A DNA stretch of 64,000 bases, taken from Umbilicaria muhlenbergii (Eukaryota; Ascomycota; Lecanoromycetes; Umbilicariales; Umbilicariaceae). Below the pieces are notes generated by a model. The model searched no databases. It saw nothing but the letters and a program-made list of their open reading frames with translations, and was not told where the DNA came from. Positions 16,146-58,133 of this stretch are shown here, piece after piece (the stretch's first letter is position 1; each line of letters begins with the position of its first letter). The stretch lies in contig KK106983.1 of NCBI GenBank assembly GCA_000611775.1, positions 4,841,818 to 4,905,817 on the forward strand, read 5' to 3'. Both the position numbers and the translations under genes were made by a program.

Positions 16146-16962
16146 CTAATCTTGCCTGCCCTTGAGTAACCTCTTCGTAACCTTGTCTTTCTCTATGAGA
16201 TAGACGTGTGCTCCCCACCCGGCCAACGCATCCCTGTCCACCGCATTCAGCAACGCCTGCGATATCGTCTCGAAGAGATCCTCAGGTTCCTAAGCAAACC
16301 AGCAACACATCAGCAATCCAAACCCCCATATTGCTCATGCCTACACACTACTTGTATCACTCACCAGATCCGGTTCCCACAACCCCTCACAAGTCCCAAA
16401 CAGCTGATCACTCGCCGTCCCCGACACAATAAAGTCCTTGGCGAAATCAATACACCCAATACTATCGAACCCGCAAATAAACGGCTTCCCCGTCGTCCGA
16501 TTTATGCCCGCCACGACGGGGCTCACAAAGTACGCTCCGAACCGCTTCTCGTACAGACTCGAGGACACCAGGTTCGCCATCGTCTGCGGGGATATGGGCC
16601 GCTCTTCGCGCAGGCGGTACATGTTTACTTTAAAGCGGAAGAGGTCGCTGACGGTGTGCACGTCGGTGGCGAGGCCGGTGAGACCCAGGTAGACGTCGCC
16701 GTAGGGGAAGATTTTCGGGAAGTTGTTCGAGACGGTGAGGGATTGGAGGCCCAGGCGCAGGTCGCAGGCGATGGCGACGCAGTCTTTGCCGACCATGGCG
16801 ACGCAGGCACCGCCGTCTGAGGGAGGGGGTTAGTGGGATGTGGTCATGGGGACATTGAGGGTGGGCTGGGGGGATATACTGATGCTGAAGGGTGAGCTCT
16901 GCCAGAGTGAGGTGTTAGTTGGGCATAGCTTTGAGAGGTGGGGTTTGGGAGGTTCGTACCAT
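16146..16962 (-). CDS. PUP3: 20S proteasome subunit beta-3
   Basis: Non-catalytic beta-ring subunit of the 20S proteasome, 205 residues. Four exons: 16960-16962, 16880-16898, 16365-16816, 16146-16289. The first coding exon is the ATG alone, directly followed by a GTACGA donor. Exon 2 is 19 nt. Splicing yields [20 protein letters not shown], which matches the beta-3 N-terminus (short, no propeptide or catalytic Thr1). Further signatures are [47 protein letters not shown] and the C-terminal [20 protein letters not shown]. The + strand changes from C-rich to G-rich inside this gene near 16.6 kb. Confidence 0.95.
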
Positions 16963-17717
16963 GCTTCCAAAGATGTTTACTGAGCTGGAGACTATTTGGA
17001 GATGTGAGTTGTGACGGTATTTCTGGGGTCTTTGGCGTGAGATGGTGGTTAAGGTATGATTGGGGGGTGGTAGCTCAGGTCTACGCGTTCGAGAGCCGCA
17101 AAGCTGCCAGATACGCTAGCTCTGGCGAGAGCGCCAAGAAGACGGAAATTTGCCCGACATCACTCTCGATTATTACTTGCCTACAGAGAATCAGGAACCA
17201 CTACATTGCTCTTTCACGTCAGATGATAGACGAACAGCTTGAGTTGAGTCAGAGCCTTTCGGGAACTACCTTGGACACTCGATGTGCATATTTAATGAAA
17301 AAGTGGTGATCGTAGAAGAAGGTCTAACTACATCATTTCTTACAAGCTCTTTCATCCTTTCTACCTTCTTATTACTAAAGTTTTTCACAGTTCTCTTCAT
17401 CTGCTCTCTCAATCGTTTTTTCTTATTTGCCATTCTTTCACCTCTGCTGTTCTTTAAGGTCTTTATTAAAGTCTTAGCTTTCTCAGCTGTCTCAATTCAT
17501 TAGACATCGAACGTAACTCAGCTCAACCTTCAAACCTGAACTGACAATGCGCATATCTCGTGGGCTAACTATTAAACTAACTACATTTGAACCCTGCTAT
17601 CTCGTTAGGCCCCTGCTACGATCTATTGTTGAATATTCCCAAAAGGGCCAAAAGCTCGACCCACTCTCCGCTCTCACAACCCTAACGGATTCTCCGCCGT
17701 CTGTTCCATCATCATTG

Positions 17718-17737
17718 CAGTGTTCCGAATAGTCTAG
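17718..17737 (+). repeat. Left terminal inverted repeat
   Basis: 20 bp, perfect inverted match to 17921-17940. Confidence 0.85.
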
Positions 17738-17920
17738 CCCGTCTAACCGTCTAGCTAGCCTGCTCGGTAGGGAGAGGTGGAAGGATAGGCACGTGGTTTA
17801 GCCCTTGGTGGCGGCAAAAAATCCATCGATAAAGGCCTGCCTGCATGTACATTTAACCCTTTCAACCCCCCCCCCCCTTTTTTTTTTCTTCTTTATTTAC
17901 CCCGCAAGACTTTCTACGGT

Positions 17921-17940
17921 CTAGACTATTCGGAACACTG
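17921..17940 (-). repeat. Right terminal inverted repeat
   Basis: 20 bp, perfect inverted match to 17718-17737. Confidence 0.85.
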
Positions 17941-18537
17941 ACTTCATGCCCCCTCAAGGCTCATGCATCTCATCGTCCTGCTTCCTCTGCACTTTCGCCA
18001 TTCTCCACTTCTTCTCCACACCATTGATATGAACTACTGCCGACCAAGCCTCTGCCACCTCAGCCGCTCGCCCTCACTTCATGATCCCGTTGTCCATGTA
18101 TCAGGGCGGCTGACACAGGTCAGCTGCCATTGATGTCGATCTGCGGGTTGGTTGGTGCTGCCCGTCCAACTCGAGGTGTTGGCGAGTGAAACAAGATAGG
18201 GACTACAGCTCAGGGAAGGAGATAGAAGTGGCGCTGAGATGCACACACTGTCTGGCTGCGAATAGCGAAAATATTGTGCCTAGCATGCAGTACGACAACA
18301 TAGGAGACACCCCAGCGCAGACAGAGCATTGCAAATAGTGCAAGTTATAAAGTAAGAGAATTGGAGGCAACCATCCATGACTCAGGGGCTGCTCACGTCA
18401 ATCCATATCGAGATTGGACCGAGAAGTCCAAATCGCTCCCTGTAGAAGATCTGCTTCACGGCTTCTCGAGCTGGAATTGCAGCGGGGAAAGGTGTCTATA
18501 TGTGAGCTTGTCAAGCCCAGAGATCCCCAGCGAACAT

Positions 18538-19473
18538 TTACAACACTCCCTTCTCCTCATCCTTGACACCTTCCACCATTGCCTTGGGATCTTTGATTCT
18601 CTCCAGATAGGCGTCCCAGCCTTCTGCCTGATACAACTTCACCGTTTCCACCGGGTCATCGGCGGCATAGATCCCACGGCCAGCGATGATAAAATCGGCG
18701 CCTCTCCCAATAGCATTCTTTGGAGTCTGATATTGCTGGCCAAGCTTGTCGCCTGTAGATGATCGGTTGACGCCCGTTGTAAATACAACAAAATCTTCTC
18801 CTTCCGTTTCCGGCACGTCTGTCACAACGGATCCTAACTCTTGCGTCGCCACAAAACCAATGACAAAGGAGCTATGTTTCCTCGCAAGCTGGACTGAGGA
18901 TTTTGTGTAGGCGCCTGTCGCCAGGGAACCTTTGGATGTCATCTCCGCAAGGATAATCAGGGCCCTGTCTCCCGAATACGGGAAATCCTTCGACTCGGCC
19001 GTCTGAGCTATTGCCTCGATGATGCCTTCACCGGCAAGGACACTTGCATTGACAATATGGGCAAACTCCGAAATGCGTAGGGCTCCGCCATGATACTGCA
19101 ACTGCGCAGTATGCCCAATATCGACGAACTTCCGATCTTCGAATATGAGGAAGCCGTGTTTTTCCGAGAGGCGTTTCAGGCCGGCCACCGTCTTCTCACT
19201 GAAATCCGAGACGATGTCAATGTGGGTCTTGAACACAACGATATATGGACCGAGCCCTGGGCCAAAACTACGTCAGTGCGCAGGCTTTTCGCTAGACGCA
19301 TCAAGGTGTTACTTGCGATCAGCCAGATCAAGAAGGGCATCAGTTTTTGTGAGGTCGGCTGATATCACCACGTTAGACTGCTTGTTCTCAGAAATGGTAA
19401 ATAGCTTCTTCACTATTGGATTTGCATGCTGCTGGGCCCGAACAGAGTACGGAAGATACGATCGGGACGTCAT
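18538..19473 (-). CDS. URA3: Orotidine 5'-phosphate decarboxylase
   Basis: Converts OMP to UMP and CO2, the last step of de novo UMP synthesis, in the cytosol (pyrG/pyr4 in moulds). Two exons, 19313-19473 and 18538-19267, with a 45-nt intron (GTAACA...GTAG), give 296 residues. The splice joins LADRN to [20 protein letters not shown]. The catalytic Asp-Lys-Asp network is in [14 protein letters not shown]. The substrate loop [20 protein letters not shown] and phosphate motif [10 protein letters not shown] are intact. Length and motifs indicate a functional enzyme. A GC donor immediately upstream (GCAAGT) was considered, but it breaks phase, so the GT donor two codons later is used. Confidence 0.96.
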
Positions 19474-20002
19474 TTTCTGGTAGTCGCGAGAAGTTTCTGT
19501 GACATGTGCTTGCTATGGACCGAACCTTCAGCTACTTCGACGGCGAGAAGTTAGCTGCAATCAAATGTGGAACAGCAGAAGTGTGCAGAGACTTCAGTGT
19601 GTACAGAGATGAGGTGCGTGAGGTCAGGATGGACTGAAATTCTAAAAGCCCTAGTCTGCCACGCGGGCAGCACAATAGACCGGAATCTCACTTTAGCAAC
19701 ACAAAGAAGGTACTTTGGATTTGCACTTGAGATTGTAAAAATCACATGTGCTAATCCTAATATCTACAATATTTTAGGGGCTTGAAGTGCGATCTTCTTT
19801 TGCAGCTCAGAGCTTCCCTAATTTAATGGATTCGCTTAATACGCCGCTAAATGCACGTTCAAAATACGTTAGGGGTCTGGAATCAATCCCGGACCCTGTC
19901 TTCGCCCTTATCCCTGATCTACACAGCAAGATGTGAATGTTCTATATCCCGCTTCTGCTGATCTGCTATCTTTTGGGGTCTCTTTGACCTGATGATTGTT
20001 GG
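19474..20002. other. Intergenic between URA3 start and UMP-kinase-like 3' end
   Basis: 529 bp, relatively AT-rich in 19700-19860. I searched the minus strand here for the missing C-terminal UMP-kinase exon (an ETSMPV-like segment) and did not find one. Confidence 0.5.
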
Positions 20003-20597
20003 TCATAGTGTTACCTTCAAGCCGCCTGAATGCCAAAGAGTGAACGTTCGGAAACGTTTTTGAATCACTTCTGTGGAATCGTCAAAGCGACTCGAAGTTG
20101 CTCCGCGCTTTAGGAGTCTTGGGAGCAACACGTTTTCTGGGCAATCGAGGAATAAGATCAAGCTTGGTGGGCAAACCATCTCCTCAAACAGTTTTGCTTG
20201 GTCCATTTCGCGTGCGAAGCCTTGTCACACCATCGCCATCAGTCACGGCTTCGCCGACGAAGTTTCTGCTCAATGACAGGAATGAGAATGTCTGACCGTC
20301 GAGAAGGAAAATCTCGCTCCCGTTATTTGCTACTTCTGCATCCATGGCTCTCCTCGATAAGGTCACTGTGATCTCCTTGGGCCCAATCCTGCCTTCTTCC
20401 ATATTCTTCTTGATGCGCCCACCATATTCGCTGCCGGGACGATTGACTTCAGCCCGCAGCACGTCGCCGATACCCAGATGCTGCAATCGATACTCTTTCG
20501 CGAAGTGAGAGCATTGAGTTCCCTTGCCAGCCCCAGGGCCACCAAGTACAAAAACGACAACAAACAGCGAGGACGGGCTTCTTGAGGGAGCCTGCAT
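20003..20597 (-). CDS. UMP/CMP-kinase-like protein with aberrant C-terminus (possible decaying paralogue)
   Basis: Related to uridylate kinase URA6 (UMP + ATP to UDP + ADP). Two exons (20297-20597, 20003-20220), intron GTCAGA...ACAAG, 172 residues. The P-loop VLGGPGAGKGTQ, the NMP-binding part RIGPKEITVTL and the lid RGATSSRFDDSTEVIQKRF are present. The conserved DGFPRKMDQ reads DGFAREMDQ. After KRFRTF the normal ETSMPVxxYF region and final helix are missing and replaced by TLWHSGGLKVTL. The protein is about 30 residues shorter than URA6 (about 204). It lies just downstream of URA3 on the same strand, catalysing the next pathway step if active. I infer a diverged or degenerating paralogue, with the essential URA6 elsewhere. 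The ATG at 20597 is the only in-frame Met before the P-loop. Confidence 0.72.
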
Positions 20598-20904
20598 TAT
20601 TGTCTTCAATGACCTGTTGCTTTTTGATAGCAACCAACAAGGTGTTCAAGCCATGAGAGTTGATTCGCCAGTTGTACACAAAGATCACCTGCGGTGCTTT
20701 GTGTGACCCCATGACCTATTGCAAGTCGTTCTTGACAGCGAAGCGCCAGGCTGGTACCGGATAGGCACAGTCAGAGGTAGAATCCCTGCCCGACCTAGCC
20801 TCATTCCTGAGCGGTAAGGCACAAGCATGTCCATTAAGGTAAGCTCAGCGCCGGACGGATTTCAAGTCGTCAGCTGTCCCTTCTAGCACCGAAACCTTTG
20901 AGCC
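20598..20904. other. Divergent promoter, UMP-kinase-like / MAK32-like genes
   Basis: 307 bp between the two start codons; no other feature seen. Confidence 0.4.
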
Positions 20905-22127
20905 ATGCCCCAGATCTCTTTCGTATCAGTAGGGCTGGCAGTCCTCGATGAACTGGTCTTCCAGACAATGGAATCATCGCAGGAACCACTTGTAGATGTC
21001 ATAGGCGGGGCAGGAACATATGGTACAAGCTAGTACTTTCGGCTATGTGGAACCTCGCCGCTGACACTCTTCACCTACAGCAACACTCGGGGCCCGCATA
21101 TTTCTACCACCGCCGGATTCGAAATCTGTAGGATGGATGATCCGTGCAGGAAAGGACTTTCCCAGTCATGTTCAGGAGGAGCTTGAACAATGGAACATCT
21201 CGTTACTTTTGAGGAAGCTTTCTGACACTCCATCTACGAGGGCGTCTCTTAAATATCAGGATTCAACCTTTGGCCGTAATATCCCGAAGAATGGAATTGG
21301 TGGCGCTGCCTTGACTAACCTCAGTCCAGCGAAGCAATTCAGATACCTATCGCCTCCCCTGGCGATATCACCAGCGGAGCATCTCAGGTCCACGCCCTTG
21401 CTATCTTCGGCTATGTTTCATTGCCTGGCCAGTCCAGAAGCTCTGGAAGAATTGATCACAAGTCTCATTGATACCCGCTGTGAGGAAAACCTCTACAAGC
21501 GGCCCTTGGTGATTTGGGAACCTGCGCCCCTGTTCTGTGTACCCGAAAACTTGACAGCTACTATACGCGCTGCTCGCCTGGTTGACGTCGTTTCACCCAA
21601 TCATGTCGAACTTGCGGCCTTGTCCGGAGACACCGAGACGGCTTTGACCGCGTCACGGCTAGAGGAAATGGCCACGGGTTTCCTGAAAAGTGGCATAGGG
21701 CCCCATGGAGAGGGGACGATTGTTGTTCGAGCGGGTGATATGGGCTGCTTTGTACGATCAAGGGCCCAAACGACGCGATGGTTCCCGCCCTATCATGTCT
21801 CCGCACTACACACGACGTCGAACCGAGTTGTAGATCCAACGGGAGCGGGAAACGCATTTCTGGGTGCTTATGGTATCGGTCTTTTGGAGACCGGTAACAT
21901 CGTAGAAGCGACCTGCTATGGAGCGGTTGGCGCAAGCTTTGCTCTCGAACAGGTTGGATTGCCGAAGCTGGATACCCTAGATGATGGCAGAGAGGTTTGG
22001 AACGGAGTTGACGTCCGATCGAGACTCTTGGAGTACAGAGAAAGGGTGAGTCTGTGTCCAACACTGACTAAGTTTCCAGCGTAACGCACACAACTCTGAA
22101 CGAGTATCGGAGTATGTCCTAATTTGA
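20905..22127 (+). CDS. PfkB-family carbohydrate kinase, MAK32-like
   Basis: Ribokinase-fold protein of the fungal MAK32 group. Yeast MAK32 is needed for stability of the L-A dsRNA system, but its substrate is unknown. Four exons (20905-21022, 21081-21275, 21330-22045, 22080-22127) give 358 residues, close to yeast MAK32 (363). The N-terminus MPQISFVSVGLAVLDELVF leads to the PfkB signature VIGGAGTYATLGAR, formed across intron 1. Intron 2 (21276-21329) has a textbook TTGACTAACC branch site; its removal gives PKQFRYLSPPLAISPAEHL. The catalytic anion-hole motif is VVDPTGAGNAFLGAY. The last 34-nt intron (22046-22079, GTGAGT...CTGACTAAG...CCAG) is short; reading through it instead would end the protein at 22084 with almost the same length. 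Confidence 0.85.
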
Positions 22128-22888
22128 GACATACATATTCGTGGAGAGTGCCTTTGTTGAGTTTGTGTGCGTCAGAATGTTACAGCAAGAGAACAGAGAT
22201 TTCATATCAAATTAGAAGGCACGACACCCACTTCATTGAGATTTCAGTATAGATCAATTCAACAAATATCAGAATTGTATATTGAATCCACTGATGTTCT
22301 GTCCTCCGTTTCTATTTCATTTTCCTTTGAAATCACATTGGCCGCCGCATGAATCAACCAGCGATTCAGACCGACCTCAGAAGACTTTTTCAAAGCTTAG
22401 GCGTAGATTCATGGCATGGAAAAAGCTAGGGACCTGGAAAACTCCTGGCCAGCTATGTGATGGCAGATTTTCATATAATCGTTCACAGTCTGTTGACAGC
22501 TGTGCACATAGCCGTTTAGTGCATGTTGAGAGCGCTCACAATGAGAAGAGATGGTGTCTGAAGCTTCCTAACTCTAATACAATACTTCTCTTGTCTTCAA
22601 AGTCTCTACTTTTTGAGTGAGATTCAAGTCGTCTTTATTGTGAGCCGCTGCGTATTAGGTCGCCGCGTCCCCGCTTGAGCCAAAAAGATCACTATGACAG
22701 GGCCCGCGGGGTCTGGCATCCCAATATTGCTCTATATGGTGCGGGGATCGCGCTCCGGAAGCCCTTAGTAAGCTAGTAAAGGCAGGCGCTGCGCGCCTGA
22801 CATAAGTTTGAAATGATCAGTGGTTTTGGATTTCTTTATTCTTATATTTATGAGGGCGAAATCACACATTTAAATATGTGAAGTCCAT
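22128..22888. other. Convergent intergenic region with a local GC-rich island
   Basis: AT-rich DNA (22140-22640 and 22800-22888) flanks a GC-rich stretch at about 22640-22800. The stretch contains the inverted repeat CAGGCG-CTGCG-CGCCTG near 22783-22799. No gene supported. Confidence 0.45.
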
Positions 22889-24542
22889 TCAAGTCCTGTA
22901 ATCACCATTGATAGTCACATCTAATTATCATTAGTTATGACGTCCGATACTGGAAACTGCAAAACTCACACTCATGACTAAAATCGCAGGTCCAACAGCT
23001 GGCCTCATGCCATCTGTATTCGCCCTTTCCAAGGTCTACCAGTATTTCCAAATCTTCTTCCGCCAGAATCTCAGCCGCTCGTGTCTCGTCTGCTGGCTCC
23101 GGCTCCCCATTGACGAGCAGTCTTAGGGGCTTGGTACCATCTTGTGGTATGAGGCTGACACTCGTTCGTTCTGGTATTACTGTATGCTTACCGCTAAGAC
23201 CCTGCGTGTAGCCAATCGCGCATATGATACGGCCCCAATTGGCGTCTTTGCCATACAACGCTGTCTTAACAAGAGGGCTGCGGGCGATTGTACTGGCTAC
23301 AAGCCGTGCATCTTTGGGGGATGGAGAATGAATGACCCGAATACGCACGAATTTTGTGGCTCCTTCCCCATCGCGGACTACCAATTGAGAGAGCTGTTGG
23401 GCGAAAGATATAAGGGTCTTTTGCAGTACTTTACCGTCTTCCGATGCATAAGACGTAACAGGCTCGCCGCCCGCTGCGCCATTAGCAAGAAGTACGACGG
23501 TATCGTTAGTACTCATATCACCGTCTACACAAATAGCGTTGAATGAGCGATCAACGGTATATGTGAGTATGGATTGTAGAGCTGAAGCAGAAATAGGAGC
23601 GTCGGTACAGAGGATACCGAGAAGAGTGGCCATGTTAGGATGGATCATGCCCGCACCTTTTGTCATTCCCGCGAGGCTATAGGTTATACCAGGCGAAGAC
23701 GGTAGCGTAAAGGTCATAGATAGGAGTTTCGGGAAGGTGTCGGTGGTACAAATTGCCCCGGCTGTCGTCAGCCACGATTGATGCGAATTATCGAGGTTTT
23801 CAAACGCTTTTGGTATAGCGGAGACGATTTTTTGGATTGGGAGATGTTGCCTAGTGGAGATCTTTCAGCGTTGACTTGCTGAGGTGGATCTTGAATTATT
23901 AGACTGTTCTCGAGAGCAGAATAGTCTCGCAAGATTTTTTTGCAACTCATACTTCTGTTCAAACGTGCTAAGGAAAACTCTGAAAAGTACATACCCAATT
24001 ACACCTGTGGACATTACCAGGGTGCTGCTTGACTCGTCTGAGGTTGGGGATAATTGCTCGTCAACTGCTTTGGCCATATGGGCTGCATCCTCAAGACCTC
24101 TTTTGCCAGTTACTGCATTTGCGCAACCGGAGTTGATAATGACGGCTCTAATCCCCTCCCCAGAGCGCTTTTGTAGGGTTTCACGACTGACTGTTACTGG
24201 CGCAGCCTGGAACTTATTTGTTGTAAACACGGCAGCAGCGGAACAAGGCGCTTCAGATGAAAGGATCGCAAGATCAGGGAGATTCTTGTTGCTTGGCTTT
24301 ACGCCGACATGAACACCGGAAACGAGGAAGCCTTTAGGGTAAGATCCTGATGTAGGTACATATTTTTGCTTCGCCGCAGGTATGGCTCCGATGACCGGAG
24401 CGGAGTAGTACCTGACTTGCTGAAAGGTGAAAGGAGTGTTCCTCCAAGCTAGCAAGACTACAGGAACGGTTAGCAGCCAGAAGATGGAGGTGTATACAGG
24501 ATCTGACGCCGCGTATCTACCTGGTTTTCGGCAAGCAGCCAT
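22889..24542 (-). CDS. ARG7: Mitochondrial glutamate N-acetyltransferase / ornithine acetyltransferase (ArgJ)
   Basis: Bifunctional enzyme of the arginine acetyl cycle: it transfers acetyl from N-acetylornithine to glutamate in the mitochondrial matrix. Four exons (24521-24542, 23995-24457, 22970-23850, 22889-22920) give 465 residues. The first intron (24458-24520, branch GCTAAC) removes 21 codons and leaves an Arg-rich presequence ([17 protein letters not shown]...VRYYS) typical of matrix import. Core motifs: [39 protein letters not shown] and [14 protein letters not shown] (across intron 2). [18 protein letters not shown] is the autoproteolysis site, with cleavage between Ala and Thr giving alpha and beta chains. 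The last exon supplies the invariant [13 protein letters not shown] end. All essential parts are intact. Confidence 0.95.
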
Positions 24543-25085: not shown

Positions 25086-26742
25086 ATGGCTTCTCATGTC
25101 GTTGTCATCGACTCCACAGCTCGCCGGGCCACCATCAGAACAACACCGGGCAAACATCTCAGCGATGTCTTGCAAGAAGCCTGCACCAAGTTTGGGCTGA
25201 ATGCAAGTCAGTATGGATTGAAGTAGGTATACAACCCTGCACTCGGGCCCTCGAGCCCTTCCTTCCAGGAGCCCCAGCTCCCTTCTTCTGGACCCGCCAC
25301 TAATGCCTTTGACTAATAGAAACAACAACAAGCAAGTCGACATTTCCCGGACTATTCGACTCTCGGGACTTTCCTCCGGCGCAAAGCTTGAGCTAGTCCT
25401 CCTCTCACGTTCTCCCTCGGTGGTCTCAGTCGCTCTCCAGTTACCCGAGTCAGAAGCCCAAGGCATACCCAACAGCCGACTGACCGACAAGTTCCCTAGC
25501 ACAACCACCCTGTGGCTAGTACTGCGAAAATTCGAGTCTGGTGCAGCTGGGGGTGCTGGGCCTACGAGAAATTTCACAGCCAGAGGGGTACCACAAATTG
25601 GCCATGGCGAAACTGGCGCTGGCCGGCTGTTCTATGAGACACCTGTATTACAGGTCATGGGCAGGGAATTATTCTCGTTTACCGATCTCCAGAAGACGCT
25701 GGCCCAGCTCGGATTCAACAGCGGCGGCATACTGATCCGGCTGAGCTTCAAGACCTCAGAGACGCCGTTGGAGGAAGCCATGGCAGAGATCGAGCAATAC
25801 TTTAAATCCGTGGAGGGAGAACAAGAAGGAGGCTCCCGAGGGGCCCACGCCGGTAGCGTAGCCCAAAGCTCCTCCGCACCCGAGTCTTCACAACCAGCAA
25901 TAACTTCAGACGACTCAAGCCCCCACTCACCCTCCGAGCTAGCCGACCCCCCATTCTCCCGCATATCCCCGCCGCCAACCTCCTCCAACCCCACCGAAAA
26001 GCAAAACGCCAACTCTCCACCCCCGGCCACCTCCCCATCAGAAGAACCAGGACCCCCCGCCCCAACCGGCCCCTCCCACCGCCCCATCTCCGTCTTCGCA
26101 CCCCCTTCCAACCCCACTCCGCTCGCCGCCCGCAGCGCCCACAACGAAGCCGACTACGAACCAACCATCGACCACGCCAAGCAGCACCAATCCCGCCTCT
26201 CCACCCACGCGCGCAACAAGCGCCTCCCCACCGACGCCGAGCTCGCCGCCCAGCAGTCCGCCCTCGCGCAGAAACTCGCCGACGTCAAATCGGTCGAGAT
26301 CAAAATCCGCTTCCCGGATCAGACGCAGGTGGTCAGTACGTTTTCGAACGTGGACACCGCGGCGGGGTTGTATGAGTTCGTGCGAGGGTTGTTGGAGGAT
26401 GAAGATGAGCCGTTTTCATTGAGGTTCGCAGCCGCCGGGGGGCCGAAAGTGGTGCCCAAGGGGTCGGAGGAGAGGTTGGTGGCGGGGTTGGGGATGGTGG
26501 GGAGGGTGTTGGTGAATTTTGTTTGGGATGAGGGGGCTAGTGCGAGGGCCATGGGGGGGAGTGCGGTGAAAGAGGAGTGGAGGCGGAAGGCGAGGGAGAT
26601 TGAGGTTAGGGAGGTGGAGAGTGAGGATATTGTGGAGGAGAGTGGGGGTGGGAGTGAGGGGAAGGGGAAGGAGAAGGTGGAAGGGAAGGAGAAGGGAAAG
26701 GGGGGGATGCCGAAGTGGTTGAAGTTGCCGGGGAAGAAGTGA
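25086..26742 (+). CDS. TUG/UBX4-type UBX-domain protein (p97/Cdc48 adaptor)
   Basis: Likely Cdc48/p97 cofactor of the ASPSCR1(TUG)/Ubx4 family, acting in ubiquitin-dependent turnover and trafficking. Two exons (25086-25222, 25320-26742), intron with GACTAAT near the acceptor, 519 residues. The N-terminal TUG ubiquitin-like domain begins MASHVVVIDSTARRATIRTT and runs to about residue 75. A middle region ending about residue 185 is followed by a Pro/Ser/Thr-rich linker (about 195-300). The C-terminal UBX domain is at about 345-425 (KSVEIKIRFPDQTQVVSTF through GRVLVNFVWDE), then a charged Glu/Lys/Gly tail. Composition is striking: about 25900-26330 is C-rich, then abruptly G-rich to the stop. 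The linker and tail may be partly shaped by this mutational skew. Confidence 0.9.
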
Positions 26743-27059
26743 GTGGATGTCCTTCAATATCCTCCAATCGGTGTTATGATGGCCATGAGCGTTGATAAAT
26801 TGAATGGGCATTTCTGGTTTAGATAGAGTTGAAAGGTATTAGCATACTAGACAGTCAATTTTGATCCACCACATCAGAAGCATTCTTCGGATGAGACTTG
26901 AAGCAAAGGCGTGCCACGATGGTTCTTCTGTCTTGCAACGAAAGCCCACAGATACCTTGTAGCTACTATGGTCTCAGCCATCCACAACAACAATGTGTCC
27001 GAGCAAGCACCATCCAGCCAGCCTCCACCCTATCAGCTCCCCGTCCCCATACCATCCGC
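26743..27059. other. Convergent 3' region (UBX gene / eL36)
   Basis: 317 bp between convergent stop codons; nothing supported. Confidence 0.4.
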
Positions 27060-27695
27060 TTAGTGAGCTGCCCGCCTCGACTCGGCAATCACTCTCTGCA
27101 ACTCATCGACCTTTCTCTTCGCGCGGCCAAACGTCCCAAGTCGCTTCTTCGCTAGCTTTCGTGCACGCTTGTCTTTGCTGTTGCGGAGGAGTTCGATGAC
27201 GCGACGCTCGTATGGTGCGAGGCTAGATCCAGGAGGAGCTTTGTTAGTAAAATGGTCTCGTTGCAAAATTGTAGATGGGTGGCGGCAGCGATCTGAAAGA
27301 TGGGAGGAAGGTTCTTTGAAAATTGCGAGTTGAGCAGTGCGAAAGCGCGAGTCGCAACAAGGTAGCTCGAGTGGCGGTTGTGGAACTTTTCCTCCTCCCA
27401 TCTCTCCTCTGGCACAATAACGGAAGTTCCAATTACACATACCCAGACACTTCCTTAACGATCTCCCTCACAAACGCAGTCCTCTTGCTCAAATGACCCT
27501 TGGTCCTCGAAATGCGCGGCTTGACTTCGCGGGCCTCGGTTTTCTATCCATTCCCACCATCGTGTTAGCCACGCAGACCCTGACCCGTTTCAGGACGACA
27601 AATAAGACCGCCGGTTTAGTGTGTAGCAGCAGATAGAGATGACATACGTGGCCGCGGTTCAGACCGACCGCGATTCCGCTTCGCTCTTTCGCCAT
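27060..27695 (-). CDS. RPL36: 60S ribosomal protein eL36
   Basis: Structural protein of the large ribosomal subunit, 103 residues. Three exons (27648-27695, 27443-27543, 27060-27222) with introns of 104 and 220 nt. The joined protein begins [16 protein letters not shown], continues [16 protein letters not shown] and [17 protein letters not shown], and ends in the very basic block [20 protein letters not shown]...RAKRKVDEL. Length and sequence are standard. I looked for snoRNA C/D boxes in the longer intron and saw none. Confidence 0.96.
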
Positions 27696-47700: not shown

Positions 47701-50170
47701 ACCAACAACAAGCGGTCTACAATGCGCTTGCCAAGATCTACATTGATAGCAACAACAATCCCGAGAAGTTCCTTAAGGAAAATGATCTTTATGACACTGT
47801 TACCGTTGGGAAGTACTGCGAGAAGCGCGACCCTAACCTTGCATATATTGCGTACCGGAAAGGTCAAAACGATCTCGAGCTTATCAACATCACAAACGAG
47901 AACTCGATGTACAAGGCACAATCCCGCTACTTACTGGAGCGTGCTGACCTAGAGATTTGGTCCTTTGTCCTCAATGGCAACAACGTCCATCGGCGATCTC
48001 TCGTCGATCAGGTCATCTCCACTGCGGTACCAGAATCGACTGAACCCGAGAAGGTGTCCGTGGCAGTCAAGGCGTTTCTGGATGCTGATCTACCGACTGA
48101 GCTCCTTGAGCTGCTTGAAAAGATCATTCTGGAGCCATCCCCCTTCAGTGATAACGGCAGTCTCCAGAATCTTCTCATGCTCACTGCTGCGAAGGCGGAC
48201 AAGGGTCGCCTCATGGAATACATCCATCAGCTCTCTGCGTACAATGCTGATGAGATCGCTAACATGTGCATATCCGTTGGTTTGTTCGAGGAAGCCTTTG
48301 AGATCTACAAAAAGGTGTCCAATCACAATGCGGCAACCAATGTTCTTGTCGACAACATTGTGAGTATCGACCGTGCCCAAGAGTATGCCGAACGCGTGGA
48401 GCTTCCCGAAGTGTGGAGCAAGGTTGCCAAAGCGCAATTGGACGGCCTGCGTGTCAGTGATGCTTTAGAGTCTTACATCCGCGCACAAGATCCGAGCAAT
48501 TACAACGAGGTGATCGACATAGCTACTCATGCGGGCAAGGATGAGGAACTTATCAAATATCTCCGCATGGCACGAAAGACGTTGAGAGAGCCAGCAATTG
48601 ATACCGCCATAGCCTTCTGCTATGCGAGACTGGATCAGCTGAGCGAGTTGGAGGACTTCCTGCATTCTAGCAATGTCGCAGACGTTGAAGCATCGGGTGA
48701 CAAAGCGTACGAAGAGGGTTATCACCAGGCCGCGAAGATCTTTTTTACCAGCATCTCGAATTGGGCTAAGCTTGCAACTACGCTTGTTCATCTTGAGGAG
48801 TATCAAGCTGCGGTCGAATGTGCTCGAAAAGCTAACAGCGTCAAAGTTTGGAAGCAGGTTAATGAAGCTTGTGTTGCCAAAAAAGAGTTCCGTCTTGCCC
48901 AAATCTGTGGCCTTAATCTTATCGTACACGCCGAAGAGTTACAGGATCTAGTCCGCCAATACGAGCGAAACGGCTACTTCGACGAGCTGATATCCTTACT
49001 TGAAGCTGGCCTAGGCCTTGAGCGAGCACATATGGGCATGTTCACCGAACTTGGCATTGCCTTGTCCAAGTACCACCCAGATAGGACCATGGAACACCTC
49101 AAGCTTTTCTGGTCTCGCATCAACATTCCGAAGATGATTCGCGCTTGCGAGGAAGCTCAGCTCTGGCCCGAGCTAATCTTCCTGTACTGCCACTATGACG
49201 AATGGGACAATGCTGCTCTGGCAATGATGGAGCGTGCAGCCGATGCTTGGGAGCATCATTCGTTCAAGGACATCGTGGTCAAGGTCGCAAATCTTGAGAT
49301 ATACTACCGTGCCTTGAACTACTATCTCCAGGAACAGCCATCGCTGCTCACCGATCTCTTACAGTCACTCACTCCAAGAATCGATGTCAACCGTGTTGTC
49401 CGGATGTTTGAGAAGTCAGACAACATCCCTCTTATTAAGCCCTTTTTACTCAACGTGCAGAGTCAAAACAAGAAAGCGGTCAACAACGCCATCAATGATC
49501 TGTTGATCGAAGAGGAGGACCACAAGACTCTCAGAGATTCAGTAGAAAACTACGACAACTACGATCCCGTTGAATTGGCACAGCGGTTGGAGCGCCACGA
49601 GCTTGTCTTCTTCCGACAGATCGCCGCAAACATCTACCGAAAGAACAAGCGGTGGGAGAAGTCTATTGCGCTATCGAAACAAGATAAGTTATTTAAAGAC
49701 GCTATCGAGACTGCAGCTATCTCTAGCAAGAGTGATGTCGTCGAAGATCTCCTTCGCTACGTAAGCTTTCTTATCACTCTTTATCTTGCTACTTCAGCTG
49801 ACTCAGCAAACAGTTCGTTGACATCGGCAGTCGAGAGTGCTACGTTGGCATGCTTTACGCTTGCTACGATCTTATCCGCCTTGACGTGGTTATGGAAATC
49901 TCCTGGCGTCACGGTCTCACTGACTTTACCATGCCCTTCATGATCAACTTCATGAGCCAGCAGGCCTCGACTATCGAGACTCTCAAGCGCGACAATGAAG
50001 AACGTAAAGCTCGGGAGGCCAAGGAGCAGAAGGAGGAAGACAACACACCGATACTTGGTGGTTCGAGGCTTATGCTTACGCAAGGACCAGTAGGAAGTGC
50101 TCCTAGTCCGATCCCTTATGCGCAGACGAACGGCATTACCCCTCAAGCTACGGGTTTCCGGGGCTTCTAG
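44800..50170 (+). CDS. CHC1: Clathrin heavy chain
   Basis: Forms the triskelion of clathrin coats on Golgi, endosome and plasma-membrane vesicles. Six exons (44800-44841, 44919-44939, 45021-45047, 45109-45480, 45537-49760, 49814-50170) give 1680 residues, the fungal norm. The N-terminal beta-propeller (about 1-330) begins MASALPIRFTELHDLAKAE, then PSSIGFNSC, TLESDHFICVRQK and GCQIINYRVNEDEKWMVVVG. The linker follows, then seven clathrin repeats of helical zigzags. The light-chain-binding and trimerisation region contains CHYDEWDNAALAMMERAADAW and VGMLYACYDLIRLDVVMEISWRHGL. The tail ends LTQGPVG...ITPQATGFRGF. The start is dispersed over three tiny exons (42, 21, 27 nt) that must be spliced to restore the propeller's first blade. 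No defects are seen. Confidence 0.97.
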
Positions 50171-50878
50171 GTGCAGGGAGTCAAGGCCGTTGGGGCTACC
50201 AGAAAAGCGGTCTGTTGAGGCGTGGCGGATGGATGGTCTTCTTCGATGTCTTAATACGCACAAGGCTTTGTTGATGTCTGCAAAAATTGCCGTACATACA
50301 TTCCATGTCGGTTGTATTTGCAATGATGTCTTTCGCTGAGGCTTACGAGCATCAGCTCCACTGTACTGCATCAAGCGTTTGATCTTCAGCGGCTCCATGA
50401 GAGCTTCTACATGTGTAATTGCTAGCTAGTAAGTAACAGTGGCCTCTCATCAACTGGTGCTACTTGATAGAACTCGTCTTCAAGGAATAGAACCAGCAAC
50501 TGCGAATTGATCGTAAAAAGGTCTCCTCGAATGAAAAGGTGTCGTCGAGGTCAGACGAGTTGAACGCCGCATGTCGATCGTTTCGTCCACAGGGCTGAGT
50601 ACCACCCCCCTGCTGTATGAAAGCCACTGGTACTCGTACAGTTAATGTCTAACACGCTCCTTTCCTTTCCTTTCACTCACTGATTCAGACGGTACACAGT
50701 GTCGTTCATGGCTTGAGCGACCGAGATTCGTCCAATCACCACAATTTTACTCCTTCGACTATAAGAGCTAGCAGAAGGCCACCTACGAGGTTCTTGGAAC
50801 AATTTCTCGAAGACGGCAAAGGTGCCTCAGAGCTGGACAAACACCATCAAAGGGCTCGGTGTTCCGTCCGCGGAAGGG
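50171..50878. other. Intergenic, 708 bp (CHC1 3' side, mannosidase promoter/5' UTR)
   Basis: An open frame continuous with the mannosidase exists from about 50766 but without an ATG. A short 5' exon spliced to it could exist, but I cannot define it. Confidence 0.4.
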
Positions 50879-53261
<2,383 letters not shown>

Positions 53262-53826
53262 TTTTTAGGGCGTGCGGATGGGGTTGGGGTTGCTTTTGCG
53301 TTGGGTTGGTGGGTTGGGATTTGGGTGCATTGGTAGCGGCAGGGGGTGTATACATAGCATTTTGGCGTGGTAGCATAGATATCTCAGTTGTTTTCATATA
53401 TGTATATCACTTGTGTTACAATCCCGTTGTGCCAGAAGTCTTTGCTGTGGTGAACTCACGTTGTATCGTTATCCACCTTTCAGCCGGTTGAGTTGTAAGA
53501 TTATATATACTTGCAAGCATGCTGGTCCGTGCCACGGTGCAGTGATTTGATCTGTAATCCATCAAATAAACAATGCAGCGAAACCGCTATAATAGTTGGC
53601 CTGATGCACATTTTGTTTGATTACATATACACAACGGAACATATTTCAGAACCATTCCTAGAAAAAAAACAGCCTTATAATCTCCCCAACCTCCTTTCCA
53701 TCAACACAACCCCATCGAAATCCATTTGAACAAAAATAAAGAGGTGCATGCTTCCCCACCCGCCCTCCCCCCCCATAATCCAAGCATCCTATTTGATCAA
53801 CTCCCCATCTCGTTTCAATCGTTTAA
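53262..53826. other. Convergent 3' region, 565 bp
   Basis: G/T-rich to about 53345 (repeated GGGTTGGG words), then AT-rich, then C-rich at about 53685-53785. No gene supported. Confidence 0.5.
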
Positions 53827-54599
53827 TTACAACCAGATAGCCAAGCCAAGGCCACCGAGAGCAAAGCCTGCGATACTGCCATGCTGTTTCTGGCCGGCGT
53901 TGGCTGTCTGCGTTGCTATTGAGGCTGTGGTTGAGGTGGTGGAAGCTAGGGTCGAGGTCGGTGCGGGCGTTGTTGAGGAGGGAGATGGGGAGGGTGTGGA
54001 AGTGGACGCTGTGGTGGAGGTTGTGGAGGTGGAGGTGGAAGTTGTGGAGGTGGAGGTGGAGGTGGAGGTTGTAGCCTCAGTGGTTGAGGTAGAGGTCTCC
54101 AGAGCAGAGCTCTTGGACTGGATAATAGAGCTTGTAGTCTCAACCGCAGAGCTGGAACCCTCACTGGAAGCAGCAGTGGGCGATTGGGCAGGAGGCGGGA
54201 TGACGCTCAGAGTAACAGTAGCCCCGCAATCAGCCAGCGGAGTACCATTGGGACAGCAGCCCGCGTTGGTGCAGTAAGAGCCGGAGGGACAGTATGCTGC
54301 AGATGAGGATTAGCCATCCGTTGAATCCAATCAAAGTAGGGGAAAAGGGTATATGACTGACTTCCGTCCGAGCAGCACGTCTGCCCTAACCCGGGATTGT
54401 AGCAGTTTGGGAAGCTGATGCATTGGACATAGCCTACCCCACAGGACCTTTCGCAGGTTACGGGAGCCGTGACTGGTTGGCAATAATGGGTTTGTCGGTC
54501 AGAGAGCCCCGACCTCGCTACTAGGGCTGCTCCTTGCCCGCTGAGGGCGGCAGCAGCGGAAGCAGCGCTGGCAAGGATGAAGATGGAAGAGAAATGCAT
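53827..54599 (-). CDS. Cys-rich, Ser/Thr-rich GPI-type cell-wall protein
   Basis: Two exons (54362-54599, 53827-54296) give 235 residues. A signal peptide (about 1-19, MHFSSIFILASAASAAAAL) is followed by a cysteine module: HYCQPVTAPVTCERSCGVG, CISFPNCYNPGLGQTCCSDG and, across the intron, TYCPSGSYCTNAGCCPNG. Short CCSDG/CCPNG units of this kind occur in many secreted fungal proteins. A stalk almost entirely of Ser/Thr with VETT and TSTSTSTT runs follows (about 125-205), then AGFALGGLGLAIWL, a GPI-type hydrophobic tail. Function unknown; wall or surface location is inferred. The stalk DNA (53920-54080) is a degenerate GGTGGA/GAGGTG minisatellite on the + strand, so stalk length may vary between strains. 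Confidence 0.85.
53925..54090 (+). repeat. Degenerate GGAGGT/GTGGAG minisatellite in a Ser/Thr stalk
   Basis: Tandem GTGGAGGTGGAGGTGGA-like units are clearest at about 54010-54070. They encode alternating Ser/Thr on the minus strand. Confidence 0.8.
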
Positions 54600-55572
54600 T
54601 GCAGGAGCTGGATCAAAGGGAAAGGAGAATGCAGCTGATGTTTGGTTTGGTTTGGTTCAATCAATGTGATAAGGGAGAAATAGGTTTAACACGGACGAGA
54701 CAGAGTTGTCCATGAGCTAGATAACAAAGGAGAGAAGGCATTTCAATCAGAGCCTCGAGCCTTGTATATGTGTGAAACGGCAGAGTCGCCAGAGCATTCA
54801 GCTCTCATTACAGTCCAACCGAGAGGCTGAAGCCTGAAGTCTTGGTATATGCTGAGCTCCAGGGTTCGCATCCAATCGCATCGCCCATCTTACCATATGC
54901 AGTTGCATCGAGATTTCCCGCCTGATCTTGGCGTGTACATGTCAGCATGCCAGTGTAGCAAAATAGGAGACAGAGCAAGACGCCGCCGCATGCAAGATTA
55001 AGTATAGAGTCTGAGGTCCCCAGACGCCCGTCGTGGCTATAAGGCCGAGTTCGTATTTGGTGGTCGCCTCAAGCGACCGTGGCCGATTAAGCGAGAGATG
55101 GGGAAGATGGGGAAGAGTGAAACACCGAATACGAAGTCCTTCATCCCACTCTCCATTCAGCTTTTCAGCCACCAAGCCGTTGTAGAGCCGTGCATTTCTT
55201 GGCTACAAGATGTGGGGTGATACCATGATGCCCTCGTTTCGCTTGAAGTCTTGTCAGCACTCAAGGCTTTGTGCAAGGCTTCGTCGCTTTCAGGGAATCC
55301 ATGTGGCTGCCGCCTTCTGTAGCGCAAGGTCGTCGCTCTTGGCGTAAGAACTATTGATATGAGGCCTAACGGCACTCAATGCTGTATCGCGTGTCCAATC
55401 AGAATTCCTGTCAACCATACGCCGCAACGTCTGTGAGGTGGTGAGCACTTGCAGCGGCCAAGGGCTAACAACACTTAGGGCCTTCTAGCGTCACAGGGAG
55501 TGAGTATCGCAATTCCCAAGGATCGTCAATTGCTAGCTTGAAGCGTGTTTATTTGGTAGGGCGAAGGGATGA
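54600..55572. other. Intergenic, 973 bp, no gene seen
   Basis: Promoter side of the Cys-rich GPI gene and 3' side of CDC43. Frames at 54942-55175 and 55157-55375 are unsupported. Confidence 0.45.
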
Positions 55573-57249
55573 TTAAACAAGACTTGATGTCGCCGTATCA
55601 CTAGTCGCTGCAGTATGCTTTTCCAGCGGCGTCTCTCCGCCTCTCCGCCACGCGAGACTCTCATGATGTTCGCGAGCGCTGACGCTGATACAGAGTGCCG
55701 GATCAATGCTCTTGAGCCCGGGCTCTCGCATGCAAGCCAAGGCCGCAAGGCCCATGTACGAATGTAAGAGATCTATAATCATAGAGTCAAATCAACGAAG
55801 CGGGTGAGCAGGGGTTTTGTGTTGAACAGGATAGTTACCTGGAGGATCCCCAGGCATTTTGCCGAAGCCGCCAATAATATGTTGCGTCTTTTCGAGCAGG
55901 TAGCGCCGGTTGGCGTTGAAATCGATCAGGTGGATCTTCTTGAGGAGCTGTAGCCGGAAAGTGTCAGGGTTGTTGTTGGGACGGCATGGAGCTGGGACGG
56001 TTGGCTTACTGCTAGAGCCCCGCCGGCCCAGAACGAGTAGCATGTATCTGCTGGTTTATTGCATCTGCCGTTCAGGCCGGCCCACTGTAGCTCCTCGGGT
56101 GAAAAGCGAAACGGCAGAGGCGGCGCAGAAGCTACCGCTGTGGGAACGGCCGCGTCGTGTGCCTGCATAAGTTGCGGGAGCCGTGCATCTGTAGGGCTGT
56201 CGTTGCCCGAAACGCTGTATTCCTCGTCGTCCTGTATGACCAATGTCTGACGGTATACTAGCCAGCGAAGTATATCTTCAAAACGTAGGTCTGAGTCTGC
56301 GAGAGGATCCTCAGGGCTCTTGGAAGATGGGAGCCTGTCCAAGAAAAATAGCGCACTGATCGCGCAGTATGTATACCCAGCTGCCGTGCAATGAGCAAGG
56401 GCGGATCAGTCAGCCTGCAGTGGAGGCGACAAGGAGCGTACCATGGGCTTCATGGAAGGGGCCTTCGCCGATACCGCCATCGTATGTCTATCCAGAACTG
56501 TATCAGTAGGTGTACTAATAGCTATCTGCAAATAAGAAGGTCTTATTACCTGCGTCGACCTAATATACCCCAGCAACCCCTCCACATCAATATCCCCCGT
56601 CCCCTCATCCCCCCCTCCCCTCAACATCCACCTCACCCCCGCCGCCGTATTACAAAATCGCATATCCCTCCNNNNNNNNNNNNNNNNNNNNCCCCTCCCC
56701 CAGCACCTCGCCAAAACTCCCATCCCCCCTCTGCAACCGCGCCAACCACCGTAAACACTCCCTCCTCCTCACCCTCTCCAACCCATCCCCCAGTACCAAC
56801 AAACTCGCCAAGGCGAAAAACGTCGCCGGCAAATTCGCCGCATCCCAATGCGCATTCCCGGCATCCCTCAGCACCCCCATATCCGCCCCCGTAAAGCCCC
56901 GAAACCCGCCATCCGGGTGCTGGCAGCGGTAGAGCCAATCGACATAGTGAGCGCGTTCGAGAGCGGTGGTGTGAGAGTGGAGGACGCCGAGGAGGTCGAG
57001 GGCGGAGAGGGTGAAGAAGGCGAGGGTGACGCGGTTGGAGTCCGAGGAGGTGTAGGCGGTGGGGAGGAAGGTTTTCAGGCAGCGGAGCCAGTATTTGATG
57101 TGCCGCTCTTTGGCGAAGGTGGAGGTGTCGGGATTGGTTGAGGGTGGCATGGTGGAGGTAAGCGCATGGCGGATGGGTGTGGAAGTGGAGGTTGCGGGTG
57201 CAAGTTGCTGTGGTGGATGGTTGGATGAGAAGGCAGGGCGGCGGGGCAC
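55573..57249 (-). CDS. CDC43: Geranylgeranyltransferase type I beta subunit (interrupted by assembly gap)
   Basis: Beta subunit of protein GGTase-I, which attaches geranylgeranyl to CaaX proteins such as Rho/Cdc42. Five exons: 56550-57249 (contains 20 Ns at 56672-56691), 56442-56487, 56010-56380, 55839-55947, 55573-55772. Motifs: KERHIKYWLRCLKTFLPTAY; RCQHPDGGFRGFTGAD; DMRFCNTAAGVRWML; TYDGGIGEGPFHEAHAGYTY across introns; LNGRCNKPADTCYSFW with zinc ligands Asp and Cys; and DLLHSYMGLAAL with the zinc-ligand His. Frame changes by one across the Ns, so the true gap length should be 1 modulo 3 rather than 20. The start may be 57249 or the in-frame ATG at 57150. About 442-475 residues. The gap lies in extreme C-rich DNA. 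Confidence 0.92.
56672..56691. other. Assembly gap (20 N)
   Basis: Run of 20 N inside the first coding exon of CDC43, within a tract where 56581-56640 has 37 C and 1 G. The length is probably a placeholder. Confidence 0.99.
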
Positions 57250-57455
57250 GAGAAGGAAGGTAAGGCTCGGCCATCAGTTGCGCCGACGCTTGGACAAGGG
57301 CGGAGCGGAAACATGCAGCCGGACCTGTAGAGCTTCCGCGAACCTAATCGCACACTGGCCCCCTTTCTCGAGTCTCGTGCTAGTCCTCACTTCGATTCCT
57401 CGTAGACTCGAGTTCAGGACGACTTCTTCGATATTCAATTATTCAATTGTCAACA
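57250..57455. promoter_or_regulatory. Divergent promoter CDC43 / ILM1
   Basis: 206 bp between start codons on opposite strands; no specific motif claimed. Confidence 0.45.
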
Positions 57456-58133
57456 ATGGCTATCCTCTCCGCAGCCTCCATCATCCGCTCCCTCTCCCTC
57501 TTCCACCTCACACTCGCCTACTTCTTCCTCACCTCCCCCGGCACTATCGGTGACCAAAACCTTGTCTTCATCCTCGGCGCGGCCATGGGCCTGGTACGTC
57601 TCGATTTCCCTTCCCGTTGTCCCTGCGCCATTCTACCACAAAGCAATCACACGAACTAAATCTCGGAAACCACCAGCCCGACGCACCCTCCTTCACCACC
57701 ACATCCGCCCCGACAGCCTTCCTCGCCGTCCTGCTAGCACTCCTCGGGCTCTCCGACTTCACCGCCGCATCCCTCCCAGAAGAAATCGGGTCCTACTACT
57801 GGAGTTCGCAAGCGCCCGTACGACTATTTTTCTTCTTCGTTGTAACGGGGTATACGTACGTGTTCAAGCCCGGTGGCATGGGGTCGGCTTTGGGGAATAA
57901 AAGCGGGACGCACACGGCAGGCGTGGGAGACGAATTGAAGAATAGTGTCGTGTTTACGTGGGGCTTTGTGGAGGTGATATGTTGGTTTTGGGTGAGTGGT
58001 TCTCGTAAATGGTGGGGGTTGGAACGGAGAGGCTGATTGGGAGGGTTAGGTTTATGTTACTTTGAGGGATGAACGGAGGGAAACTGTGGCGCGGGCTGCT
58101 GCGAAGAGGAAGGCGGAAGAGAATATGTTGTGA
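57456..58133 (+). CDS. ILM1: ILM1 family membrane protein
   Basis: Fungal 'increased loss of mitochondrial DNA 1' family, an ER-associated membrane protein of unclear biochemical role. Three exons (57456-57593, 57677-57991, 58050-58133) give 178 residues with about four membrane segments: IIRSLSLFHLTLAYFFL; AFLAVLLALLGLSDFTA; VRLFFFFVVTGYTYVF; and NSVVFTWGFVEVICWFW joined to VYVTLRDERRE. Conserved pieces are SPGTIGDQNLVFILGAAMGL and SLPEEIGSYYWSSQAPVR. The C-terminus is a basic helix. Composition switches from C-rich to G-rich near 57.82 kb within exon 2. Family assignment rests on my memory of the conserved YYW-SQAPVR and D-N-LKNSVVFTWGF blocks. Confidence 0.8.

What the first reader, a model, noticed from the sequence alone, without database searches (positions are those of the whole stretch)
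16210..58133. Repeated C-rich to G-rich composition switches inside conserved genes
At five places (about 16.6, 26.33, 52.65, 56.93, 57.82 kb) the + strand goes abruptly from C-rich/G-poor to G-rich/C-poor, with arms of about 300-500 bp, then returns to normal. Examples I counted: 26041-26100 has 33 C/10 G and 26461-26520 has 35 G/2 C; 56581-56640 has 37 C/1 G and 57001-57060 has 33 G/7 C. Every case is C then G, never G then C. This order is invariant under reverse complement, and the genes lie on both strands, so transcription does not explain it. Proteins stay conserved; the bias sits in third positions, introns and disordered tails. I infer a strand-symmetric process spreading from a point, such as break repair or recombination with biased synthesis, acting as a local mutator. 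Neighbouring genes (clathrin, ADE17, SERCA) lack it.
Basis: partly seen in the sequence, partly recalled or inferred. Interest (0 to 1): 0.78.

Follow-up and report, generated by a model that had tools for sequence, protein, structure and literature searches.

The report
C-to-G skew switch near gene ends
In what is probably a lichen fungus, many genes carry near their 3' end a sharp point where the DNA turns from C-rich to G-rich within a few hundred bases, in silent sites and noncoding DNA too, which looks like a footprint of local DNA repair or recombination rather than of protein coding.

Summary
The switches are real and not confined to the window. The quoted counts are exact. In 240 kb from elsewhere in the genome, C->G switches outnumber G->C 20 to 8 (a block-reversal null reached this excess in 1 of 300 trials). 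"Never G then C" is wrong: the window has two or three G->C switches, each between neighbouring C->G centres. The strand argument fails too: C->G is its own reverse complement.

The centres lie near gene 3' ends. Of 39 ORFs >=1 kb, 16 have a C->G step >0.3, all at 0.64-0.97 of the ORF, median 276 bp from its end. Fourfold-degenerate sites of 56 ORFs classed terminal have skew -0.38 at 420-900 bp before the ORF end and +0.29 in the last 240 bp; 13 putative internal exons lack the G arm. Noncoding DNA and third positions of both gene orientations share the bias; G+C rises from about 0.52 to 0.62. Codon usage, hairpin selection and replication-scale skew do not fit.

Best reading: break repair or conversion centred near gene 3' ends with a strand-biased outcome. 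Break maps, polymorphism and sister-species DNA were out of reach; the mechanism is inferred.

The parts
16101..17100 (.). C->G switch: C arm 16101-16587, G arm 16588-17100
16344..16829 (-). ORF of a proteasome beta subunit (PF00227; called PUP3/beta-3 from its homologues) spanning the centre at 16587, about 244 bp from the ORF end
25901..26800 (.). C->G switch: C arm 25901-26315, G arm 26316-26800 (26601-26700 holds 57 G and no C)
25222..26739 (+). TUG/UBX-domain ORF; centre about 424 bp before its end
26850..26854 (.). G->C switch between two C->G centres
27001..27400 (.). weaker C->G switch centred at 27137, near the 3' end of an L36e ORF (27060-27467, minus strand, PF01158); the coding HMM missed this gene
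52101..53400 (.). weaker C->G switch: C arm 52101-52600, G arm 52601-53400
   Evidence: below the filter
51423..53261 (+). GH47 mannosidase (PF01532), three ORF pieces
53472..53472 (.). G->C switch between two C->G centres (300-bp arms)
53601..54200 (.). C->G switch centred at 53856-53880: C arm 53601-53870, G arm 53871-54200
53827..54309 (-). Ser/Thr-rich ORF taken as coding by eye; no Pfam match, and the HMM called the other strand
56501..57300 (.). strongest C->G switch: C arm 56501-56914 (with N's at 56672-56691), G arm 56915-57300
55926..57150 (-). prenyltransferase beta subunit (PF00432), two exon pieces; centre about 236 bp after the start codon, so NOT at the gene's 3' end
57265..57308 (.). 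G->C switch between two C->G centres
57301..58100 (.). C->G switch: C arm 57301-57800, G arm 57801-58100
57554..58036 (+). Ilm1 ORF (PF10311); centre about 187 bp before its end

Best explanation
Each switch is the accumulated footprint of DNA breaks that recur near one point, usually some 50-500 bp before a gene's stop codon, and are repaired by homologous recombination with a strand-dependent outcome. Left of the point the + strand drifts to C (G and T lost most); right of it, to G (C and A lost most). Two routes give this sign. (a) Mismatch-biased conversion: on the left the recipient's + strand pairs with the donor's - strand; replacing G by C there goes through a G:G mismatch, the reverse through C:C. 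If keto:keto mismatches are repaired towards the donor better than amino:amino ones, the left arm gains C and A and the right arm G and T. (b) REV1-like translesion synthesis opposite lesions in the displaced new strand, which leaves G in that strand beyond the break. Shown here: the anatomy, the C->G excess in a 240-kb sample, the anchoring near gene 3' ends, independence of codon position and gene strand, raised G+C. Inferred: that the point is a break, that it is meiotic, and the choice between (a) and (b).
For: C->G excess outside the window 20 vs 8, 1429 vs 0 bases in 500-bp arms, null 1 of 300. Mirror-image arms of a few hundred bp (gene-oriented, 24 events), of the order of conversion tracts in the fungus Zymoseptoria tritici (medians 539 and 432 bp; PMC10294615, passages). 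Same sign in third positions of + and - genes and in noncoding DNA, with G+C raised to about 0.62 at the centre. Amino-acid composition shifted in opposite senses in the two arms of the TUG protein against 120 homologues, as a process blind to function would do. In a convergent pair (TUG/L36e) each gene has its own centre. The genome holds a SPO11/Topo VIA-like locus, a REV1 C-terminal domain and six MutS-III loci. Exonic recombination hotspots are known in a fungus (1435 of 2578 in Z. tritici; PMC5844332, section 27).
Against: No break map, cross or polymorphism was available. Conversion biased to GC is reported as extremely weak or absent in Zymoseptoria (section heading and passages of PMC5844332), and a title in a reference list reports no GC bias in plant and fungal tetrads. 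Human break-associated mutation has the opposite strand sign. Positions tied to gene 3' ends also suit a transcription cause. Protein shifts are less clear in PUP3 and the prenyltransferase.
Confidence: 0.5

Rival explanations
1. Transcription-linked bias at gene 3' ends: polymerase pausing, R-loops or antisense transcripts near the terminator bias mutation so that the coding strand becomes C-rich before, and G-rich after, a point upstream of the stop codon.
For: Centres are tied to ends of ORFs classed terminal, not to internal exons. The G-rich coding strand runs slightly past the ORF end. The step is larger before convergent than tandem neighbours (means 0.19 vs 0.077; 31 vs 35 ORFs; p = 0.06, not significant).
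Against: The bias is local: fourfold skew is about zero in mid-gene of long ORFs and changes sign within the gene. In the convergent pair TUG/L36e there are two switches, one in each gene, not one between them. Some centres lie early in the gene (prenyltransferase; C13 peptidase and formin exons). No RNA data were available.
Confidence: 0.25
2. Selection on the sequence itself (codon choice, mRNA structure or disordered protein tails).
For: Some arms encode low-complexity Pro/Ser/Thr-rich or Gly/Glu/Lys-rich stretches, as in the TUG protein, where relatives have similar linkers and tails.
Against: Same bias in noncoding DNA and in third positions of genes of either strand and in fourfold sites of ORFs not chosen for skew. 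RNA folding is not stronger than in within-arm shuffles (26 regions, mean z -0.3, s.e. 0.26).
Confidence: 0.08
3. Replication-origin skew in miniature: leading strand G-rich on both sides of an origin.
For: C->G is the sign known at bacterial origins (recalled).
Against: Skew is gone within about 550-750 bp, and centres recur every few kb in the sample (26 in 244 kb of GC-normal sequence), far too dense and short for forks that run for kilobases.
Confidence: 0.03
4. Artefact of a short-read assembly or of the ORF method (C-rich DNA lacks stop codons and stretches ORFs).
For: All 4 runs of N in 304 kb have skewed DNA (|skew| >0.3 over 200 bp) on at least one side, against 15.5% of 200-bp windows; one run has a nearly unskewed right flank.
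Against: Arms encode Pfam domains in frame. The stretching artefact predicts the effect at internal exons running into introns, but 13 putative internal exons show +/-0 in the last 240 bp, against +0.29 for 56 terminal ORFs.
Confidence: 0.03

Closest known systems
Strand-asymmetric mutation at human meiotic break hotspots (Hinch et al. 2023, PMC7615360; passages and sections 4 and 8 seen)
   Same: Mirror-image, strand-dependent base changes on the two sides of a point, over a similar scale (flanking 2 kb, off-centre peaks at 700-800 bp); C>G and A>G with REV1-type translesion synthesis suggested.
   Different: There C and A are lost from the resected strand, which lies left of the break on +, so the left side should become G/T-rich; here it is C- (and A-) rich. 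There it is a mutation footprint in rare variants at PRDM9 sites; here the composition itself is skewed, near gene 3' ends.
GC-biased gene conversion and intragenic hotspots in fungi (Zymoseptoria, PMC5844332 and PMC10294615; passages and one section seen)
   Same: Centres in coding sequence, tract lengths of a few hundred bp, G+C raised at the centre.
   Different: Ordinary GC bias favours G and C alike on both sides; here C only on the left and G only on the right. Bias to GC is reported weak or absent in Zymoseptoria.
GC skew and R-loops at 3' ends of vertebrate genes (recalled; not read)
   Same: G-rich coding strand near the end of genes.
   Different: As far as recalled, no C-rich arm upstream and no sharp paired switch.
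Strand-biased mismatch resolution during single-strand annealing in mouse cells (PMC9001825, passages)
   Same: Shows that mismatch repair tied to break repair can favour one strand.
   Different: An experimental reporter; the bias followed flap length, not base identity, and no genome footprint was described in the passages seen.

Membership tests
Recombination-hotspot / biased gene conversion footprint | G+C raised at a focal point | tested here: met
   About 0.52 in the flanks to about 0.62 at the centre, 26 events
Recombination-hotspot / biased gene conversion footprint | Tract of conversion length, symmetric about the point | tested here: met
   Arms of 300-550 bp, similar upstream and downstream in gene orientation
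Recombination-hotspot / biased gene conversion footprint | Equal gain of G and C on each side (ordinary GC bias) | tested here: not met
   C .48/G .13 left, G about .47/C about .15 right
Recombination-hotspot / biased gene conversion footprint | Coincidence with crossover or break sites; transmission bias in crosses or polymorphism | not testable with these tools
   No cross, population or break data held
Human-type break-associated strand-asymmetric mutation | C and A lost left of the break on the + strand | tested here: not met
   C gained and A kept better than T on the left in third positions; holds only if the centre is a break
Transcription-associated skew | Skew of one sign along the transcribed region | tested here: not met
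   Fourfold skew near zero in mid-gene and of opposite sign in the last 240 bp and at 420-900 bp; a form confined to 3' ends stays open
Codon-usage or peptide-run effect | Bias follows the coding strand and is absent from noncoding DNA | tested here: not met
   Third positions of + and - genes and noncoding DNA share the + strand bias by side
Replication-origin skew | Skew over replication-fork distances | tested here: not met
   Arms end within about 750 bp

The most novel reading that the evidence does not exclude
Gene 3' ends in this fungus are recurrent break-and-repair sites whose repair carries a strand-asymmetric drive (C written left of the break, G right), strong enough to reach about 4:1 to 5:1 at third positions and to move protein composition, with the opposite sign to human break mutagenesis. 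The map of such sites and the chemistry of the bias could be read from a single genome sequence.
Probability: 0.35. Interest if true: 0.85.

Novelty: new variant of a known kind. Interest (0 to 1): 0.62.

Why it matters
If the switch points are break sites, a fine-scale map of recombination or repair can be read from one assembly of an organism whose crosses are hard to follow, and the sign of the skew tells which strand and which mismatches or lesions win. It would also be a strong case of a drive blind to function shaping coding sequence at a fixed place in genes. Whatever the cause, such arms can mislead gene finders (the coding HMM took the wrong strand at 53.9 kb), protein-composition studies and short-read assemblers (all 4 N runs seen abut skewed DNA).

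Tried and rejected
Codon usage and peptide runs: rejected by fourfold and noncoding sites. mRNA hairpins: 26 regions, mean z -0.3, s.e. 0.26 against within-arm shuffles. Replication origins: arms too short. One switch per convergent pair: in TUG/L36e each gene has its own. ORF-stretching artefact: rejected by internal exons, though that classification is rough (a formin exon, L014:2063-3289, was classed terminal but its Pfam domain is cut at the ORF end). Enzyme with a sequence context: dinucleotide ratios in the arms differ only modestly from background (largest: AA 1.27 vs 1.04); no signature claimed. Substitutions private to the window's TUG protein against three close relatives were too few to polarise (6-7 per region, no excess in the arms). 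DNA of other fungi was not held, so whether the pattern is peculiar to this lineage is unknown. Print: ten searches of the open-licence library, seen as listings only, showed no title or abstract start describing such switches; subscription journals and preprints were not covered.
Full report
Setting. The window is bases 4841818-4905817 of contig 3 of a 34,788,950-base, 7-contig genome. [quoted passage not shown] The best named homologues are lichen fungi: Pleopsidium flavum and Lasallia pustulata for the TUG/UBX protein, Lasallia at 73% identity for the prenyltransferase. The species is an inference.

Observation. The four quoted counts are exact. The 100-bp tracks show abrupt C-rich to G-rich switches with arms of about 300-500 bp. 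The genes there are a proteasome beta subunit, a TUG/UBX protein, a GH47 mannosidase, a prenyltransferase beta subunit and Ilm1. The 52.65-kb case is weaker and fails the filter. Two further switches pass it: 53.88 kb, in a Ser/Thr-rich ORF without Pfam match, and 27.14 kb, near the 3' end of ribosomal protein L36e. G->C switches occur in the window at 26.85 and about 57.3 kb and, with 300-bp arms, at 53.47 kb, each between two C->G centres.

Independent sample. I fetched 24 further 10-kb stretches. With 300-bp arms and |skew|>0.35 they hold 18 C->G and 6 G->C switches; with 250-bp arms and |G-C|/L>0.16, 20 and 8. Counted in bases, C->G exceeds G->C by 1861 to 153 (400-bp arms, 0.2) and 1429 to 0 (500-bp arms, 0.2). 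At short arms the excess is small or absent (96 vs 82 at 150 bp, 0.2; 16 vs 15 at 150 bp, 0.3). Reversing random 1.5-kb blocks without complementing reached the observed excess in 1 of 300 trials. The six AT-rich stretches (60 kb) have no event.

Where the centres are. A three-periodic coding HMM trained on long ORFs gave strand and frame. Of 20 event-linked ORFs scanned against Pfam, 9 had a match over the cut-off in the assumed strand and frame, 1 only a match below it, 10 none. Of the 26 C->G events, 24 lie in or beside a called gene; leaving out 53880, whose strand I read differently from the HMM, 21 of 23 lie at 0.5 or beyond of the called gene. Of the 39 ORFs of at least 1 kb, not chosen for skew, 16 have a C->G step above 0.3; all 16 lie at 0.64-0.97 of the ORF, median 276 bp from its end (KS p = 8e-7). 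The 9 G->C steps below -0.3 are scattered from 0 to 1.

Fourfold-degenerate sites of 70 coding ORFs go from skew -0.39 in the bin 600-750 bp before the ORF end to +0.29 in the last 150 bp. For the 51 ORFs outside the window the values are -0.35 (99% interval -0.48 to -0.21) at 420-900 bp and +0.26 (0.08 to 0.42) in the last 240 bp; of 50 with both bins, 27 go C to G, 7 go G to C, 11 are negative in both and 5 positive in both. The 19 window ORFs alone give -0.33 and +0.19, the latter not distinct from zero. The G arm belongs to gene ends: 56 ORFs classed terminal give -0.38 and +0.29, 13 putative internal exons -0.21 and -0.01, one edge ORF dropped. The class is set by the gap to the next called coding stretch and is rough. 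The anchoring is not universal: the prenyltransferase centre is 236 bp after the start codon, and centres in a C13-peptidase and a formin ORF lie in exons whose Pfam domain is cut at the ORF end. The first 150 bp of long ORFs are mildly C-rich at fourfold sites (-0.22, 31 ORFs), without a G-rich partner upstream.

What the bias is. Around 26 centres the + strand reaches C .48/G .13 on the left and G .47/C .15 on the right, G+C rises from about 0.52 to 0.62, and the skew is gone by about 550 bp on the left and 750 bp on the right. Third positions of + genes (left C .62, G .11) and of - genes (left C .54, G .14) and noncoding DNA (left C .40, G .14) agree. First and second positions are shifted from background as well. 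In third positions A exceeds T on the left and T exceeds A on the right; over all sites this A/T skew is weak. In gene orientation the two arms are about equally strong (24 events). The events were chosen by their skew, so the size of the skew in these tables is partly by choice; the C->G excess, the anchoring and the fourfold plots are not. Folding is not stronger than in within-arm shuffles.

Protein load. Against 120 homologues the TUG protein is extreme in the G arm (Gly/Ala/Asp/Glu/Val 0.529 vs 0.401, s.d. 0.041, rank 4) and in the C arm (Pro/Thr/Ser/Ala 0.507 vs 0.422, s.d. 0.037, rank 3), less so upstream (0.362 vs 0.335, s.d. 0.023, rank 19) and in the conserved part of the C arm (Pro/Thr/Ser/Ala rank 14). 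In PUP3 the class with C in first position is highest of all in the C arm (+2.7 s.d.) and lowest of all in the G arm (-2.1), and the G class is +1.8 in the G arm; but Pro/Thr/Ser/Ala is up in both arms (+2.1, +1.9). In the prenyltransferase Pro/Thr/Ser/Ala is +2.4 in the C arm and the G class +2.2 in the G arm, but the control exon also has Pro/Thr/Ser/Ala at +2.2. So the protein effect is clear in one gene and mixed in two. An unnamed close relative (P0002) and Lasallia (P0008) have TUG arms of similar composition, so the feature may be shared in the family.

Mechanism. C->G is its own reverse complement, so genes on both strands do not exclude a gene-linked cause, and the anchoring demands one, at least for position. 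To be explained is a point some 280 bp before the stop with mirror-image arms of conversion-tract size and raised G+C. Recurrent break repair at that point gives the geometry. In human hotspots C and A are lost on the forward strand, where the resected single strand lies left of the break (PMC7615360, sections 4 and 8 and passages); that would make the left arm G- and T-rich, the opposite of what is seen. Two other steps give the right sign. If keto:keto mismatches (G:G, G:T, T:T) between recipient + and donor - strand are repaired to the donor better than amino:amino ones (C:C, A:C, A:A), the left + strand gains C and A; poor repair of C:C in yeast meiosis is recalled, not looked up. Or REV1 inserts C opposite lesions in the displaced new strand, which lies right of the break on +, and that strand gains G. 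A SPO11/Topo VIA-like locus, a REV1 C-terminal domain and six MutS-III loci are present, which permits both and proves neither. Breaks near terminators are known in Arabidopsis, just downstream of transcription termination sites (PMC6237102, passages); here the centre is inside the coding end. The main rival is a transcription-linked cause at 3' ends; the larger step before convergent neighbours (p = 0.06) would suit either.

Limits. The sample outside the window is 0.7% of the genome, gene models are from a simple HMM, and no second fungus, polymorphism or break map could be examined. I hold the observation and its anchoring as established in this sample, and the mechanism as a reasoned preference.

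Noticed in passing
L025:5937-5967: A Nextera-like adapter sequence (recognised from memory) sits directly before a 15-base run of N, inside a G-rich stretch: likely adapter contamination at an assembly gap.
   Followed up: no
window 56672-56691; L017:6956-7523; L025:5953-5967; L030:3967-4610: All 4 runs of N in 304 kb have strongly skewed DNA on at least one side, so the assembly probably breaks or loses sequence in the most extreme arms.
   Followed up: partly
L011, L013, L015, L018, L026, L031: Six of 24 sampled 10-kb stretches are AT-rich (GC 0.30-0.38) against 0.50-0.54 elsewhere, and hold no switch; perhaps repeat-mutated isochores (recalled idea).
   Followed up: no
L010:3377-3776: Some 400 bp with 60-70% G and almost no C on the + strand, beyond the usual arm.
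   Followed up: no
window 52867-52886: A GGT repeat inside the G arm of the GH47 gene, one of 70 places of this 17-base word in the genome.
   Followed up: no
first 150 bp of ORFs >=1.2 kb (31 ORFs): Fourfold sites are mildly C-rich at gene starts (skew -0.22, then about zero), without a G-rich partner upstream.
   Followed up: partly
P0002, P0008, P0033 (homologues of window 25222-26739): An unnamed close relative, Lasallia pustulata and one more homologue have TUG arms of composition like the window's, hinting that the bias at this gene is shared or recurrent.
   Followed up: partly
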